Of a stretch of 64,000 bases of DNA, positions 28,651 through 45,112 are shown piece by piece. The first letter of the stretch is position 1. Every line of letters begins with the position of its first letter. The position numbers were made by a program, and so were the translations under genes. Source of the DNA: Actinoplanes siamensis (GTDB lineage Bacteria > Actinomycetota > Actinomycetes > Mycobacteriales > Micromonosporaceae). The notes below the pieces were generated by a model. The model was given only the letters and a program-made list of their open reading frames with translations. It was not told the origin of the DNA and made no database searches. The DNA lies in contig NZ_BOMW01000012.1 in the NCBI RefSeq assembly GCF_016862395.1, positions 62,001-126,000 of the forward strand. Direction: 5' to 3'.

Positions 28651-29565
28651 TCATTCCCGGCCGACGGCGGCCGCCAGCCAGGAGGGCAGCGGCTCGCGGT
28701 TGGTGAGCCACTCGCCGGGGATCCCGTCGATTCCGGTGTACGCCGCCACGACTCCCCCGGCGATCGCCGCCGTGGTGTCCACGTCCCCGCCGGCCGCCAC
28801 GCACGCCGCGATCGCTGCCGGATAGTCGTCCAGGTACCGGTCGGCCACCCAGAGCGCGAACGGCACGGTGTCCTGCGCCGTCGCCCGTCCCCCGTTGCCC
28901 AGCCGCTCCGCCGCCTCCGCGACACTCCTCGGCGCCGGCCCGGTCAGCCCGTCGCGGACCACACCCGGCGCGGTGTGCGCCGCCGTGGCCCGCAGCAGCC
29001 GGCCGGGGTCCGGGCGGCGCCCGCCGAGCCGGGCGGCGGCGGCGAACGCGGCGGCCACGGACACCGACACCCCGCCCGCGATCCCCTCCGGATGCGCGTG
29101 GGTCACCTCGGCGGCGCGGGCGCCCTGCACGGCCGCGTGCGCGAGCGAGTCGGCGTGCCAGGCCCCGAGCGGCGCGGCGCGCATGGCCGCCCCGTTCCCG
29201 CACGAGCCCTGCCCGTCGAACGCCGCGGCGGCCGCGATCGGCCAGGGCAGCCCCTCACGGATCTGGCGCAGCATCACCACCGCGCCCGGCCCGTATCCCC
29301 GATAGGGTTCGAAGACGCTGCCCAGGCGCCACGCGAAGGCGTCCCTGTCGAAATCTCCATCGTCGAGCGTGGCCACCAGGCAGCAGGCCTGCTCGGTGTC
29401 GTCGGTCCAGTCCCAGGGCGGGTCCGGGACCCGGGCGTCGAGCAGGTCGGCGGGCTCGTTGCCGGGCACGAAGTACTGCGCTCCGAGCGCGTCGCCGACG
29501 CTGAGGCCGGCCAGGCTCTCGAGGGCCAACGCGAGTCGCGTACCGGGGAAGAGGGTGAAAGACAT
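28651..29565 (-). CDS. ADP-ribosylglycohydrolase (DraG family)
   Basis: This 304-residue protein removes ADP-ribose from targets or hydrolyses related nucleosides. The metal-binding motifs are WDWTDDTEQA near residue 50 and GGDVDTTAAIAGGVVAAYTG near residue 265. I choose the ATG at 29565 because homology begins at LALALESLAGLSVGDALGAQY. An upstream start at 29619 is possible. It is divergent from the response regulator at 29662. No ADP-ribosyltransferase gene is visible nearby, so the target is unknown. Confidence 0.9.
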   Translation of the reverse strand: MSFTLFPGTRLALALESLAGLSVGDALGAQYFVPGNEPADLLDARVPDPPWDWTDDTEQACCLVATLDDGDFDRDAFAWRLGSVFEPYRGYGPGAVVMLRQIREGLPWPIAAAAAFDGQGSCGNGAAMRAAPLGAWHADSLAHAAVQGARAAEVTHAHPEGIAGGVSVSVAAAFAAAARLGGRRPDPGRLLRATAAHTAPGVVRDGLTGPAPRSVAEAAERLGNGGRATAQDTVPFALWVADRYLDDYPAAIAACVAAGGDVDTTAAIAGGVVAAYTGIDGIPGEWLTNREPLPSWLAAAVGRE

Positions 29566-29649
29566 CGGTACTTCGGATCGTATTCCATCACTGATTGTCA
29601 TCAAAGCATCTCGCTGCATGACACTTTAGGTTCTGCCCGCCGCGGCCGG

Positions 29650-29655
29650 TACGGT
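29650..29655 (+). promoter_or_regulatory. -10 hexamer TACGGT, leaderless start of the response regulator
   Basis: TACGGT is followed by CTTCGC and the ATG at 29662. No ribosome binding site is visible. The operon of regulator, kinase and possibly the secreted protein would start here. Confidence 0.5.
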
Positions 29656-29661
29656 CTTCGC

Positions 29662-30351
29662 ATGGCCACGGTGTTGCTCGTCGAGGACGACCATGTCGTG
29701 CGTGGCGCCATGCTCCGTTCGCTCGCCGACCGCGGGCACGCCGTGCACGCCGTCGGCACCGCCCTGGAGGCGCTCCGGCGGGTCGCCGCGGAGACACCCG
29801 ACCTCGTCGTGCTCGACCTCGGTCTGCCCGATCTGGACGGTTCGGACGCGCTGCGCATGCTGCGCGGCATCACCGATGTGCCGATCATCATCGCCACCGC
29901 CCGCGACGACGAGCAGACCGTCGTGCGGCTGCTCCGGGCCGGCGCCGACGACTACATGGTCAAGCCGTTCACCGGCGCCCACCTGGACGCCCGGATCGCC
30001 ACGGTGCTCCGCCGGGTCGGCCGCGCCAGCCGCGCCGCGGCGCCGGCCGTGCACGAGGTGGGCGAGCTGCGGGTGGACGTCGGCGAGCGCAGCGCTACCC
30101 TCGGCGATCAGCCGCTGGCGCTGACCCGCAAGGAGTTCGACCTGCTGGCGTACCTCGCCGCCCGTCCGGGCCGGGTGGTGTCCCGTCGTGAGCTGTTGGA
30201 GGAGGTATGGCGGCAGCCCTCGGTCGGCGAGGACCAGACCATCGACGTGCACTTGTACTGGCTGCGCCGGAAACTGGGCGAGTCCGCGGCGAAGCCCCGT
30301 TACCTGCGCACCGTGCGGGGGGTCGGATTCCGGTTGGTGGCGCCGGACTGA
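29662..30351 (+). CDS. OmpR/PhoB-type response regulator
   Basis: This 229-residue protein has a receiver domain with the acidic pocket VEDD near residue 8, the phosphorylatable aspartate at about residue 52 in LDLGLPDLDG, and the lysine in YMVKPF. The C-terminal winged helix ends LRTVRGVGFRLV. It directly precedes and nearly overlaps the kinase, forming a two-component pair. Its targets probably include the secreted protein downstream, although a 233-bp gap separates them. Confidence 0.95.
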   Translation: MATVLLVEDDHVVRGAMLRSLADRGHAVHAVGTALEALRRVAAETPDLVVLDLGLPDLDGSDALRMLRGITDVPIIIATARDDEQTVVRLLRAGADDYMVKPFTGAHLDARIATVLRRVGRASRAAAPAVHEVGELRVDVGERSATLGDQPLALTRKEFDLLAYLAARPGRVVSRRELLEEVWRQPSVGEDQTIDVHLYWLRRKLGESAAKPRYLRTVRGVGFRLVAPD

Positions 30352-30353
30352 GG

Positions 30354-31748
30354 TTGCGGCTGGCGTACACGACCGCCGCCACCACCGCCGTGGCCGCCCT
30401 GGTCTTCCTCGTCCCGCTGGGCTGGGGCCTGCGCTCGGACCACCGCGAGCAGGCGCTGTCCGACGCCGCCCGGCAGACCGCCACGGTGGCCGGCGCGCTG
30501 GTCGCCGGCGCCGGCGACAAGGGGGTGGCGGCCGCGGCCGCGACCGCCGGCAACCCGGTCGTGCACACCCCGGGCCTGGCGCCCGGCGACGGTGGCCGGG
30601 CCAGCGCCGCGGAGATCGACCGGGCGGCGAGCCGCACCGGGGCGAGCATCGTGGACGTCCCCGGCGGCGTGCTGCGCCTGCAGCCGGTCACCGCCGGCAC
30701 CAAGGCCTGGGTGGTCGAGGCGTTCGTGCCGGACGCCGAGCTGGGCGCGAACACCGCCCGCGACTGGTGGCTGTTGCTCGGCCTGGCGGTGGTGCTGGTG
30801 GGCGGCTCGGTGATCGTGGTGGACCGGCTGGCCCGCGGCGCCGTGGACTCGGCGAACAACCTGGTCGAGGCGGCCCTCGCGGTCGGCGACGGCGACCTGG
30901 GCGTGCGGATCCACCCGTCCGGGCCCCGCGAGCTGGCCGAGGCCGGGTACGCGTTCAACCGGATGGCCGACCGTCTGATCACCTCGCGCACCGACGAGCG
31001 GGAGCTGGTCGCCGACCTGTCGCACCGGCTGCGCACCCCGCTCACCGCGCTGCGGCTGGACGCCGAGGCGCTCGACCCGGACGACACCCAGATCATCGAC
31101 CTGACCGCGGACGAGGTGGACCGGCGGCGCGGCATCCGGCGCATCCGGAAGGCCATCGCCACTCTGGAGGACGAGGTCAACTCGCTGATCAACACCACCC
31201 GGCAGGCGGTCGCCGCGCAGGTGGCGGCCGCCCCCGAGGAGGGGATCTGCGACGCCAGCGAGGTGGTCCGGGAGCGGATGAGGTTCTGGTCGGCGCTGGC
31301 CGGCGACCAGAACCGGCAGTACCGCGTGGTCGGCGCGCACCTGCGGATCCCGGTGCCGGTGCCCCGCGCCGAGCTGGCCGCGGCACTGGACGCGGTGCTC
31401 GGCAACGTTTTCCGGTACACCCCGCAGGGCACCGCCTTCGAGGTGGCGCTCTCCCGCCGGGACGGCTGGGTGGCGCTACGGGTGGACGACGCCGGCCCGG
31501 GCATCCCGGACCCGGAGAAGGCGCTGCGCCGCGGTCAGAGCCAGCAGGGCTCGACCGGGCTGGGCCTGGACATCGCCCGCCGGATGACCCAGTCCAGCGG
31601 CGGCTCGGTCAGCCTGGACCGGGCCACACTCGGCGGCGCCAGCGTGGTGATGCTGATCGCCGACGCCGAGGCCGCCCCGAAGACGCCCAACCGCTTCGGA
31701 CTGGTCGGCCGCGGCGGTCGCGGCCGCCGGTGGCAGCGTCCGAGTTGA
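30354..31748 (+). CDS. Sensor histidine kinase
   Basis: The start appears to be the TTG at 30354, two bases after the regulator stop. This gives 464 residues. A first membrane helix at residues 8-25, an extracytoplasmic sensor of about 110 residues, and a second helix (LLLGLAVVLVGGSVIVV) precede a HAMP-like linker. The H box is DLSHRLRTPLTALRLD with His at about residue 224. The ATP lid motifs are VDDAGPGIPD and STGLGLDIARRMT. The ligand is unknown. The extracytoplasmic part is Ala/Gly-rich without obvious motifs. Confidence 0.93.
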   Translation: MRLAYTTAATTAVAALVFLVPLGWGLRSDHREQALSDAARQTATVAGALVAGAGDKGVAAAAATAGNPVVHTPGLAPGDGGRASAAEIDRAASRTGASIVDVPGGVLRLQPVTAGTKAWVVEAFVPDAELGANTARDWWLLLGLAVVLVGGSVIVVDRLARGAVDSANNLVEAALAVGDGDLGVRIHPSGPRELAEAGYAFNRMADRLITSRTDERELVADLSHRLRTPLTALRLDAEALDPDDTQIIDLTADEVDRRRGIRRIRKAIATLEDEVNSLINTTRQAVAAQVAAAPEEGICDASEVVRERMRFWSALAGDQNRQYRVVGAHLRIPVPVPRAELAAALDAVLGNVFRYTPQGTAFEVALSRRDGWVALRVDDAGPGIPDPEKALRRGQSQQGSTGLGLDIARRMTQSSGGSVSLDRATLGGASVVMLIADAEAAPKTPNRFGLVGRGGRGRRWQRPS

Positions 31749-31812
31749 AGCGCAAGACCCTTGACGGACACCTCCCCCAGACGGAACAGAAGTTGCTTAG
31801 ATCTGTTTTAAG

Positions 31813-31849
31813 AGTGTTCCCCTGGCTCGCCCGGACTGGCAGTGTTCCC
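31813..31849 (+). repeat. Short direct repeat upstream of the secreted HELTH protein
   Basis: AGTGTTCCC occurs at 31813 and again at 31841, 28 bp apart, in the otherwise gene-free 233 bp after the kinase. It could be a regulator site for the preceding two-component system. This is speculative. Confidence 0.3.
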
Positions 31850-31981
31850 TCCGATCCCATCCGGCTCCCCGGTTCGCTCACCGCACGTCCCCATCGCCGC
31901 GGCCGGCGGAGCCTCGGCTCGGTGGGGGGCGGGCACCCCATGGCCCCCTCCCACCGTGCGCCAGCTCGACGAGGAGACGCT

Positions 31982-34207
31982 TTGCCAGCGCATCGCCGGT
32001 CAGCCTCCGGGTCGCCCATCGGGCGGCGCCGGGCCGGGGATGAGCAACCGGGGGCGTCACGCCCGGTCACCGGCCGGATGCTTCCGGTCGTGCTCGGGCT
32101 GGCCCTGCTCGGGGTCGGCGGCCTGGTCGGGCCGAGCGTGATCGGCTCCTCCCGGGACGACGACCCCGGCGCCTTCGAGCTCACCGCGCTCCCCGAGGAC
32201 GCCCCGGACCAGGGGCTGGTCTACGAGGGACTTGAGCCGGCCAAGTCCGGCGCGCTCTGCTCCGGGTCGTACCTGCTCTTCGACGAGACCTGCACGCACG
32301 GCCCGGATCGCGCGCCCACCGGCCTGACCGTCCGCAAGGACGTCGCCCCGGTCACGGCGCCCACCAACCTGCCCGACAAGGTGCGCGCCATGCAGCCGGT
32401 GGTCGTCCCGCCGGACGCGGAGATCGCCCGCGACCTGGGCGGCAGCGCGCTCACCCCGGACGCGCCGGCCCTGATCGCCGACCCGGCGCCGGGCAACGCC
32501 GACTTCGTGCTCGGCCCCTCCGGAGTGGCCTGCGCCGACGACGGGCAGAGCGGTAAGCGCGTCCAGGTGCTCTACCTGTACGCGGCCGGCACCGCCACCC
32601 GCTACCGGCAGTACGTGAACTCGTTCCGCACCTGGGCGGCCGGGGTCGACGCCATCTTCGACGCCAGCGCCGGCGAGACCGGCGGCTCCCGGCACGTGCG
32701 CTACGTGACCACTCCGGAGTGCACGGTCTCGGTCTCCGAGGTGGAGCTGCCGGCCGGCTCGCTCGACTCGTTCGCCGCCACCGTCAAGGCGCTGAACGGC
32801 CTCGGCTACAACCGCGCCGACCGCAAGTACCTGATGTTCTCCGACTCGAACGTCTACTGCGGCATCGGCACGTACGTCGACGACCCCCGTCCCGGCCGCA
32901 CCAACCGCAACAACGCCGGCCCGTCGTTCGCCCGGGTCGACTCCGGCTGCTGGAGCTCGGTGATGGCCGCGCACGAGCTGACCCACGTGTTCGGCGCGGT
33001 GCTCAACGGCGCGCCGAACAGCACCGGAGCGGGCGGCTGCGTGGACGACTACGACCTGCTCTGCGGCCCGGACCGGTCCGGCGAGACGGTCCGGCCGACC
33101 TGCCCGAAGACGCACGAGGTGCGCCTGGACTGCGGGCACGACGACTACTTCAACACCAACCCGAAGCCGGGCAGCTACCTGGACACCCACTGGAACGTGG
33201 CGCTCAGCGACTTCCTGCTGCGCAGCGACGGCGGTGACGACATCCCGGACGTCCCGGGCGCGGTCACCCCCGGCCCCACCCGCCAGGGCACGCCGCCGGC
33301 CAGTGCCCCGCCGGCCCGGCCGGACCCGTCGCCGAGCACCGTGCCGTCGCCGGCCGGTCCGGCCGCGGACCCGGCCGGCCCGAGCACGCCGCCGGGCTCA
33401 CCCGCGGCCACGGCGCCGCTGCCGGGCGCCAGCGCGGGCGCCGGGCTGGACGCCGAGCGGGCCGCCTTCCACGCCGAGTCGGGCAGCCAGAACGGGTCCG
33501 GCGACCAGGACAGCGGCGCGCCGGCCGGGACGGGCTCGCAGGCGGCCCTGGAGATCCGCGACGCGACCAGCATGTCGGTCCGGCTCACCTGGAGCGCCGC
33601 GTCCGACGACGCGAAGTACGAAGTGTCAGTGGACGGCAAGCCGGTGGCCACCACCAAGGCGACCCGGGCCCGGCTGATCGGGCTCAAGCCGGACGCCACG
33701 TACCGGGTGGAGGTCAGGAGCCGGACCGCCGGCTACCGCGCGACCGGCTCCGCGAAGACCGCCCCGGCCGCCCGGCCGGTGCAGAACTCGTGGTTCGTGC
33801 TGACCAACTCGCTGACCGGCGGCGCGGCCGACCTCTACGCCGCCCGCGCCGCCGACGGCACCCCGGCCACCCTGTCCGCGGCGGACGGCGGCAACCAGCA
33901 GCAGTGGCAACTCGTCCCGGCGGCCGAGGCGCTCAACAGCTACACGCTGGTCTCCCGGGCCAGCGGCAAGTGCCTGCTGCCGCTCGGCGGCGCTCCGGTG
34001 GCCGGCGCGCCGCTGGTACAGGGCGACTGCCAGAGCCCGGGCACCCGCTGGCACCTGCAGGCCTCCGGGTTCGGCTTCACGCTGCGCAGCCAGACCGGCG
34101 ACCTGGCGGTCGGAGTCGGCGGCCAGCGCTTCGGCTGGCACCGGGTGCTGGCCCTGGAGCCGGACACCGGTCAGCGTCACCAGAGCTGGACCGCGGTGCC
34201 GAACTGA
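31982..34207 (+). CDS. Secreted/anchored HELTH-motif protein with FN3 and ricin-type lectin domains
   Basis: I place the start at the TTG at 31982 because GAGGAG lies 5 nt upstream. The 741-residue protein has a basic N-terminus, a signal/anchor helix (MLPVVLGLALLGVGGLVGPS), and a large extracellular region with several cysteines. A zinc-protease-like AAHELTHVFG has its histidines at residues 331 and 335. A Pro/Ala-rich linker follows at about 425-515, then one fibronectin III domain (about 520-595). The C-terminal ricin-B lectin region has QQQWQL and HQSWTA. The third metal ligand is not obvious. Protease activity on a surface polymer or protein is inferred. Confidence 0.85.
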   Translation: MPAHRRSASGSPIGRRRAGDEQPGASRPVTGRMLPVVLGLALLGVGGLVGPSVIGSSRDDDPGAFELTALPEDAPDQGLVYEGLEPAKSGALCSGSYLLFDETCTHGPDRAPTGLTVRKDVAPVTAPTNLPDKVRAMQPVVVPPDAEIARDLGGSALTPDAPALIADPAPGNADFVLGPSGVACADDGQSGKRVQVLYLYAAGTATRYRQYVNSFRTWAAGVDAIFDASAGETGGSRHVRYVTTPECTVSVSEVELPAGSLDSFAATVKALNGLGYNRADRKYLMFSDSNVYCGIGTYVDDPRPGRTNRNNAGPSFARVDSGCWSSVMAAHELTHVFGAVLNGAPNSTGAGGCVDDYDLLCGPDRSGETVRPTCPKTHEVRLDCGHDDYFNTNPKPGSYLDTHWNVALSDFLLRSDGGDDIPDVPGAVTPGPTRQGTPPASAPPARPDPSPSTVPSPAGPAADPAGPSTPPGSPAATAPLPGASAGAGLDAERAAFHAESGSQNGSGDQDSGAPAGTGSQAALEIRDATSMSVRLTWSAASDDAKYEVSVDGKPVATTKATRARLIGLKPDATYRVEVRSRTAGYRATGSAKTAPAARPVQNSWFVLTNSLTGGAADLYAARAADGTPATLSAADGGNQQQWQLVPAAEALNSYTLVSRASGKCLLPLGGAPVAGAPLVQGDCQSPGTRWHLQASGFGFTLRSQTGDLAVGVGGQRFGWHRVLALEPDTGQRHQSWTAVPN

Positions 34208-34263
34208 CCGATCCCCTCACCCCCCCATCCCGGCCGAACCGCCGGAGCGACAGGAGAGCAGCG

Positions 34264-34410
34264 ATGCGTGACGTGCTGAGCAGGCGGAAGACCGAGCCGG
34301 AGGAGGAGCCGGCCCGGTTCGGCCGCCGCAGGCTGATCCGCTGGCTGACCATCCTCACCATCGGCACGGTGGTGATGCTGGCCTGCTGGCAGGACCCGCT
34401 CTATCCCTGA
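34264..34410 (+). CDS. 48-residue single-pass membrane peptide
   Basis: The ATG at 34264 has AGGAG 6 nt upstream. The peptide has a charged N-terminus (RRKTEPEEEPARFGRRR) and one membrane helix (LIRWLTILTIGTVVMLACW). It lies 56 bp after the secreted protein and overlaps the stop of the convergent adenosine deaminase gene by 10 bp. Unknown function; it may modulate the kinase or protease upstream. Confidence 0.7.
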   Translation: MRDVLSRRKTEPEEEPARFGRRRLIRWLTILTIGTVVMLACWQDPLYP

Positions 34411-44983: not shown

Positions 44984-45112
44984 GTGCCGCTCACCCCCCT
45001 CGCGGAAGCCACCGTCGACTGGTCCCAGGTGCATGCCGTCCGTCTGCTCGGCGTCGCTCTGGCCGTGCTTTTCCTGCTCTGGGCCATCCGCCGCATGTTC
45101 CGCGGCAAATAG
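44984..45112 (+). CDS. 42-residue membrane peptide upstream of recQ
   Basis: The peptide has a short polar start, one membrane helix (VRLLGVALAVLFLLWAI) and a basic end (RRMFRGK). It ends 18 bp before recQ and is probably cotranscribed. No family is recognised. It may be one residue longer from the GTG at 44981. Confidence 0.65.
   Translation: MPLTPLAEATVDWSQVHAVRLLGVALAVLFLLWAIRRMFRGK

What the first reader, a model, noticed from the sequence alone, without database searches (positions are those of the whole stretch)
29650..34410. Two-component system feeding a secreted HELTH/FN3/ricin protein and a 48-residue membrane peptide
Seen: a leaderless response regulator, a near-overlapping kinase, then a secreted protein with HELTH at residues 331-335, an FN3 domain, a ricin-type lectin tail and a micropeptide with one membrane helix, all on one strand. 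Inference: a sensing circuit that deploys an extracellular lectin-guided protease, with the peptide as regulator or anchor. I know no named system of this composition.
Basis: partly seen in the sequence, partly recalled or inferred. Interest (0 to 1): 0.55.

Follow-up and report, generated by a model that had tools for sequence, protein, structure and literature searches.

The report
Sensor-controlled structured RNA before dead protease
Next to a bacterial sensor-regulator gene pair we found an apparently undescribed folded RNA that the regulator probably switches on; it recurs in many genera of one bacterial family, while the neighbouring 'protease' that first drew attention is a part of the locus in only some of them and has mostly lost its catalytic residues.

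Summary
The four genes are real: response regulator 29662-30351, kinase 30354-31748, secreted HELTH/FN3/ricin protein 31982-34207, 48-residue membrane peptide 34264-34410. The order is conserved in 36 of 61 related loci.

The 'protease' reading fails for most sensor-linked relatives. The domain has a metzincin fold, but 16 of 55 linked copies keep HExxH, against 33 of 33 unlinked ones. In the 43-copy Actinoplanes clade, window included, a second histidine (invariant in the unlinked copies) is gone in 43 and the Met-turn methionine in 41. The protein stays under purifying selection: a probable pseudo-metzincin.

The unexpected part is the gap 31749-31981: a regulator-type direct repeat, a promoter at fixed spacing and a ~115-nt two-hairpin RNA with covariation and no Rfam match. 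It occurs once per genome in 49 of 121 Micromonosporaceae, 48 of them 2.2-3.1 kb downstream of the regulator. In 11 of 24 loci without the secreted protein the peptide is absent too; in four the RNA ends 4-31 nt from a convergent gene.

Best reading: the system drives a dedicated RNA, possibly an sRNA, which in Actinoplanes also leads the pseudo-protease/peptide mRNA. No transcript was measured.

The parts
29662..30351 (+). OmpR-family response regulator, 229 aa, probably leaderless
   Evidence: Pfam Response_reg and Trans_reg_C; 79-100% identical orthologue in 76 of 121 family genomes; TAnnnT 6-7 nt before the ATG in 39 of 39
30354..31748 (+). Sensor histidine kinase (TTG start)
   Evidence: HAMP, HisKA, HATPase_c; follows the orthologous regulator in the loci examined
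31797..31811 (+). Putative regulator-binding direct repeat TTAGATCTGTTTTAA (TTA-N8-TTA, 11-bp period)
   Evidence: One TTA-N8-TTA within about 900 nt after the kinase in 83 of 94 loci (two pairs of loci are identical there); exact consensus only here in the own genome; 0.11 matches expected in the window at up to 2 mismatches, 4 found
31837..31845 (+). Extended -10 promoter element TGGCAGTGT (TGnCAnnnT)
   Evidence: Each specified base of TGnCAnnnT present in 64 of 67 rows at a fixed distance
31853..31965 (+). Two-hairpin structured RNA: 5' GAUCCC, hairpin 1 with large C-rich loop, hairpin 2 with C-rich loop; leader of the secreted-protein mRNA here
   Evidence: Covariation; folding z -2.33 for the window copy and -3.4 to -7.1 for five relatives; model R1 hit 80 bits (the window sequence is in the model); no Rfam match
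31982..34207 (+). Secreted pseudo-metzincin/FN3/ricin-B protein (TTG start, 741 aa)
   Evidence: 36 of 61 related loci carry it in the same four-gene order
32972..32986 (+). HELTH (residues 331-335), relic of the metzincin active site
   Evidence: HExxH intact in 16 of 55 linked and 33 of 33 unlinked relatives; residue 352 is Gly where unlinked copies have His, residue 360 Leu where they have Met
33548..33751 (+). FN3 domain
   Evidence: Pfam PF00041, 26.2 bits
33797..34189 (+). Ricin-type beta-trefoil lectin domain
   Evidence: Pfam PF14200 58.4 bits; PF00652 21.7 bits, below its cut-off of 29
34264..34410 (+). 48-residue single-span membrane peptide with conserved RRxxR...WQ(D/E)P motif
   Evidence: 57 aligned members: Arg26 and Pro45 in 57, Asp/Glu44 in 57, Trp42 and Gln43 in 55 (window residue numbers)

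Best explanation
A two-component system controls one dedicated promoter just behind its kinase gene. The phosphorylated regulator binds the 11-bp-period direct repeat at -56 to -42 and activates a promoter (TGnCAnnnT) that makes a conserved RNA of about 115 nt with two hairpins and exposed C-rich segments. In some Micromonosporaceae this RNA ends a few nucleotides from the convergent neighbour, so it most likely acts by itself as a small RNA, plausibly by pairing its C-rich loops with G-rich ribosome-binding sites (inferred). In Actinoplanes-type genomes the same RNA is the leader of an mRNA for a secreted, mostly non-catalytic metzincin-lectin and a small membrane peptide; in several other genera of the peptide alone. 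The peptide is best explained as an MgrB-like feedback modulator of the kinase. The secreted protein is best explained as an extracellular glycan- or protein-binding scaffold. Shown by sequence: gene order, box and promoter at fixed spacing, RNA structure, linkage, decay of the active site. Inferred: binding by this regulator, the transcript itself, RNA action in trans, peptide feedback, scaffold role.
For: RNA structure: 18 of 28 pairs changed on both sides; covariation score 0.284 against 0.168 in shuffles (0 of 500 reach it) and 0.061-0.110 when slid. Folding z -2.33 for the window copy, -3.4 to -7.1 for five relatives. Linkage: 49 of 121 family genomes, one hit each, 48 of them 2191-3136 nt after the regulator start on its strand. 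At order level 23 of 200 genomes, all 23 of the same family. Box to RNA 55-57 nt in 67 of 67 rows. Stand-alone RNA: 11 of 24 loci without the secreted protein also lack a peptide match; in four of them (L157, L160, L152, L161) the RNA ends 4-31 nt from the convergent stop codon. Dead protease; selection kept. Peptide conserved with and without the secreted protein.
Against: No expression data. The model was built from 50 sequences; at least 28 of the 49 family genomes with a hit supplied one (25 regions fetched from them, the window, and two whose contig lengths equal those of L040 and L043), so at most 21 are independent. I left 16 diverged elements out of the alignment; there the model scores weakly. 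The window copy folds less strikingly (z -2.33). Hairpin 2 lacks a T-run, so where the RNA ends is unknown. In the other 7 of the 11 peptide-less loci 125-216 nt remain before the convergent stop, and unrelated small ORFs there were not excluded. L024 and L036 keep box and secreted protein without an RNA hit, G076 has the secreted protein without a hit, and six genomes of genus g19 have the regulator without the RNA. The box is not enriched genome-wide (own genome 2 sites at up to 1 mismatch, 6 for the reversed control). No RNA targets were computed.
Confidence: 0.6

Rival explanations
1. One reading: the sensor pair deploys an active, lectin-guided extracellular metalloprotease.
For: HELTH present in the window copy; metzincin fold; sensor-linked copies of genus g44 keep HExxH, the second His and Met in 5 of 5.
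Against: HExxH broken in 39 of 55 linked copies; the second His absent in 43 of 43 Actinoplanes-clade copies, window included; Met-turn Met absent in 41 of 43. Secreted protein beside the regulator in 21 of 76 genomes (by eye).
Confidence: 0.12
2. The RNA is a purely cis-acting leader (riboswitch, thermosensor or protein-binding attenuator) controlling the downstream gene.
For: In Actinoplanes it lies directly upstream of the ribosome-binding site; the 3' arm of hairpin 2 is C/U-rich and could pair with the Shine-Dalgarno (inspection).
Against: 11 of 24 loci without the secreted protein have no peptide match either, and in four the RNA runs to within 31 nt of a convergent stop codon; L024, L036 and G076 have the secreted protein without an RNA hit.
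Confidence: 0.27
3. The hairpins are only a transcription terminator between convergent genes, or a DNA-level dyad.
For: Strong GC hairpin 2 near the convergent stop codon in several genomes.
Against: Fixed spacing to promoter and box, conserved 5' end, covarying hairpin 1, loop GGT and a CCCC run invariant in 24 of 24 rows; also present upstream of the secreted protein, where the strong hairpin precedes a gene.
Confidence: 0.1
4. The micropeptide is a membrane anchor or partner of the secreted protein, not a kinase modulator.
For: Directly downstream of the secreted protein in Actinoplanes.
Against: Conserved in 13 of 24 RNA-bearing loci that lack the secreted protein.
Confidence: 0.2

Closest known systems
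Small RNAs activated by two-component response regulators (e.g. DosR-controlled DrrS of Mycobacterium, PMC5360333, seen in a search listing only)
   Same: Structured RNA with a promoter preceded by a response-regulator-type box; linked to a regulator
   Different: No Rfam match; found here only in one family; encoded directly behind its own kinase; becomes an mRNA leader in some genera
6C RNA of actinobacteria (features recalled; papers seen in listing only)
   Same: Two hairpins with C-rich loops
   Different: The whole Rfam library, searched with E up to 10 on four loci, gave no match at the element
MgrB, PhoP-activated small membrane inhibitor of PhoQ (PMC2789325, PMC8404706; listing and abstract starts)
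   Same: 47-48 aa, membrane peptide, probably made under control of the adjacent system's regulator
   Different: No sequence relation tested; motif WQ(D/E)PLY instead; feedback not shown
Inactive ADAM/M12 pseudopeptidases (PMC11266112, passages read)
   Same: Metzincins with substituted HExxH; HQxxH also occurs there (ADAM7)
   Different: Bacterial; the Met-turn methionine is lost too, which the review says ADAM pseudopeptidases typically keep
Akkermansia OgpA and Amuc_1438 glycopeptidases
   Same: Best structural matches, Z 11.3-12.0 over 167-175 residues
   Different: 10-13% identity; O-glycan specificity untested; the window copy lacks residues invariant in its own unlinked relatives

Membership tests
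Metzincin metallopeptidases | Metzincin fold | tested here: met
   AlphaFold2 model pLDDT 86.4; the best VIA matches are metzincins, Z up to 12.0, rmsd 3.7 over 175 residues; relatives hit Pfam reprolysin-like families weakly, Reprolysin_4 in 26 of 73
Metzincin metallopeptidases | HExxHxxG zinc motif | tested here: inconclusive
   Intact in the window copy; broken in 39 of 55 linked relatives, intact in 33 of 33 unlinked
Metzincin metallopeptidases | Third zinc ligand (His/Asp at HExxHxxGxxH/D, or its equivalent) | tested here: not met
   Residue 341 is Leu; the candidate His352, present in 33 of 33 unlinked copies, is Gly. That His352 is the ligand was not shown: no coordinates were available
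Metzincin metallopeptidases | Met-turn methionine | tested here: not met
   Residue 360 Leu in the window and in 41 of 43 clade members, Met in 33 of 33 unlinked
Metzincin metallopeptidases | Proteolytic activity | not testable with these tools
   Needs protein
6C RNA | Match to the Rfam family | tested here: not met
   No match of any Rfam family at the element in L152, L157, L164, L166 with E up to 10, nor in the window at gathering thresholds
Trans-acting sRNA | Independent transcript without ORF | tested here: inconclusive
   Promoter, structure, and 11 of 24 contexts without secreted protein or peptide, four of them without room for a gene; no transcript measured
Trans-acting sRNA | Base-pairing targets | not tested
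OmpR/PhoB-type regulon | Regulator with receiver and winged-helix domains | tested here: met
OmpR/PhoB-type regulon | Direct repeat near -35 of a target promoter, bound by the regulator | tested here: inconclusive
   Repeat at -56 to -42 with fixed spacing; binding not tested
MgrB-like kinase inhibitors | Single-span peptide of about 47 aa in the regulator's own regulon | tested here: inconclusive
   Size and position fit
MgrB-like kinase inhibitors | Inhibits the kinase | not testable with these tools
   Needs a reporter strain

The most novel reading that the evidence does not exclude
A family-wide, undescribed, C-rich two-hairpin regulatory RNA is the main ancestral output of a two-component system. 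In some lineages this stand-alone RNA gene has been turned into the 5' leader of an mRNA for a membrane peptide and a recruited extracellular metzincin, and the recruited enzyme then lost its active site and works as a non-catalytic lectin scaffold under the same switch.
Probability: 0.4. Interest if true: 0.77.

Novelty: new variant of a known kind. Interest (0 to 1): 0.62.

Why it matters
It gives a defined RNA, with predicted start, promoter and one predicted controller, in a family rich in antibiotic producers (recalled) for which the literature searches here listed no described counterpart. It would let one ask how a small-RNA gene becomes an mRNA leader, because both states and the intermediate (peptide only) exist in related genera. 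It also shows a bacterial metzincin losing its catalytic residues while linked to a sensor system and staying under selection, a natural series for pseudoenzyme evolution.

Tried and rejected
Rfam: no family at the element. Known riboswitch or 6C RNA: no match. Solved relatives by sequence: none for the domain alone; the profile gave only a keratinase at E 0.37. Wide regulon of the box: not supported, 2 sites at up to 1 mismatch in the own genome against 6 for the reversed pattern. A second box about 12 kb downstream, seen in 3 of 12 genus genomes before another micropeptide, is not complete in the window, so I do not claim it. Literature: searches listed nothing on this RNA, this locus or the secreted protein among the rows shown; the library holds open-licence PMC papers only. 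A loose regular-expression search for the peptide missed most copies; a profile search replaced it. The 'tail length' lines are unreliable for L019, L021, L024, L031, L038 and L042 (motif matched elsewhere in the frame), so tail lengths are not counted.

Rows dropped: 109 domain hits were reduced to 90 distinct sequences; L142 (linked; the HExxH region is missing) and L064 (unlinked; HExxH intact) were left out of the tree and counts. That tree is a quick one with long branches among distant rows. 'Unlinked' means no regulator or kinase hit in the DNA held, or the regulator elsewhere by coordinates; for L121 and L122 it rests on different contigs of draft genomes. A1 holds 73 of the 90 rows. 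Of 84 extracted elements 16 diverged ones were not aligned; A2 holds 50 of the remaining 68. The 67 rows omit L024 and include L036, which keeps only a 29-nt stub. L025/L026 and L045/L136 are identical in the box region. Eleven of 94 loci had no TTA-N8-TTA in range.

Full report
What is there. The window lies in an 8.2-Mb genome of 161 contigs; its nearest named relatives in the scan are Actinoplanes. HELTH is at 331-335 if translation starts at the TTG at 31982. The regulator has a TAnnnT hexamer 6 nt (36 loci) or 7 nt (3 loci) before its ATG in 39 of 39 regions, which supports 'leaderless'.

Gene order. A genome scan with the secreted protein gave 61 loci. Regulator, kinase, secreted protein and peptide are all present in 36 of 61; L011 and L045 are cut by contig ends, no peptide was found in L020, and 22 have no regulator or kinase hit in the DNA held. 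In an even sample of 121 family genomes an orthologous regulator (79-100% identity) is present in 76 and the secreted domain, anywhere, in 48 at E up to 1e-10. They are neighbours in 21 of the 76 (counted by eye from both tables). So the secreted protein is a lineage-specific part of the locus. In loci without it the micropeptide is often still there.

The HELTH domain. No Pfam or NCBIfam family covers it in the window protein, but relatives hit reprolysin-like families weakly. The AlphaFold2 model (A1, 73 rows, pLDDT 86.4) matches metzincins: the best VIA match is Amuc_1438, Z 12.0, rmsd 3.7 over 175 residues, followed by OgpA and ADAM17. Foldseek alone gave one hit at E up to 0.001, mature Bacteroides fragilis toxin 2. 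In 88 aligned copies all 33 unlinked ones have HExxH and a histidine at position 352. Of the 55 sensor-linked ones 16 have HExxH and 12 have His352. In the Actinoplanes clade (43 rows including the window) His352 is absent in 43, Met360 in 41, and HExxH intact in 9. The (quick) tree needs at least 9 changes for HExxH and 1 for His352. Genus g7 carries HQLVH in 5 of 5, and genus g44, also linked, is intact in 5 of 5. Pairwise dN/dS is 0.14-0.41 in the pairs tested with at least one broken motif and 0.10-0.38 in pairs with HExxH on both sides. This looks like a retained pseudoenzyme. That His352 is the third zinc ligand is inferred from conservation only.

The non-coding gap. Between kinase and secreted protein the relatives share a block that does not look coding, and the same block is seen in genomes without the secreted protein or peptide. 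It contains TTA-N8-TTA, found once within about 900 nt after the kinase in 83 of 94 loci. The promoter element TGnCAnnnT has each specified base in 64 of 67 rows. The RNA then begins with GATCCC (GAACCC in part of the family). Box to RNA is 55-57 nt in 67 of 67 rows, one of them the stub of L036, which places the repeat at -56 to -42. The exact box occurs once in the own genome.

The RNA. In an alignment of 50 sequences (A2) the structure of two 14-pair helices has 86.7% of cells paired and 18 of 28 pairs with changes on both sides. The covariation score is 0.284 against 0.168 in shuffles (0 of 500) and 0.061-0.110 when slid. Single-sequence folding z is -2.33 in the window and -3.4 to -7.1 in five relatives. 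In 24 sequences from loci without the secreted protein, hairpin 2 is nearly invariant, and the loop's GGT and a CCCC run are invariant. Element lengths of 105-121 nt among these 24, with indels not in threes, and the compensatory changes argue against coding.

Distribution. A covariance model (R1) finds one hit per genome in 49 of 121 family genomes (15 of 44 genera). 48 lie 2191-3136 nt after the regulator start on the same strand; the other, G077, is near a contig end. At least 28 of these 49 genomes supplied a sequence to the model, so at most 21 are independent. By regulator identity, 47 of 55 genomes at 91% or more carry the linked RNA and 1 of 21 at 79-86%. In 12 loci of the diverged group weak hits (E 0.0015 to 0.9) start within about 10 nt of the place predicted from the box; two further weak hits lie on the opposite strand and are probably chance. 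Of 200 genomes at order level 23 have it, all of the same family. Among 62 loci including the window it is in 37 of 40 linked and 0 of 22 unlinked. No hit: L024, L036 and L045, G076 and six genomes of genus g19.

Mechanism. A regulator whose best predicted site is one promoter, with a fixed architecture and a conserved folded RNA, points to the RNA as the ancestral output. In 11 of 24 loci without the secreted protein there is no peptide match either. In four of these the RNA ends 4, 23, 28 and 31 nt from the convergent stop codon, which leaves no room for a gene; in the other seven 125-216 nt remain and small unrelated ORFs were not excluded. A leader with nothing to lead is unlikely, so I favour a stand-alone RNA; its C-rich loops suggest pairing with G-rich ribosome-binding sites (inference, not computed). 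In Actinoplanes the same RNA precedes the secreted protein and the peptide. The peptide has an Arg in 57 of 57 members before its membrane span and WQ(D/E)P after it. Being small, membrane-spanning and downstream of the regulator's putative box, it resembles MgrB in logic (abstract starts of PMC2789325 and PMC8404706), not by tested homology.

Literature. Searches listed no paper on this RNA, locus or protein among the rows shown. The pseudopeptidase review PMC11266112 (passages) gives the closest parallel for active-site decay. DrrS (PMC5360333) was seen only in a listing.

Noticed in passing
window 44984-45112 (+): A second small membrane peptide of about 42 aa, conserved in three genus genomes (L194, L196, L217); there a box-like TTAG...TTAA site lies just upstream, but the site is incomplete in the window.
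   Followed up: partly
   Followed up: no
   Followed up: no
L156, L182, L185, L189 (genus g19): The regulator and kinase are kept but no box or RNA model hit follows the kinase; another coding region appears to start there in some.
   Followed up: no
   Followed up: partly
window 29562-29661 and the same region of relatives: Upstream of the leaderless regulator an imperfect inverted repeat (GTCAT...ATGAC) looks conserved; possible autoregulatory site (by inspection).
   Followed up: no
L152, L157, L164, L166, about 2.7-3.7 kb beyond the RNA: Sub-threshold hits (33-39 bits, cut-off 78) of the Rfam cspA model in all four loci searched, opposite strand to the RNA.
   Followed up: no
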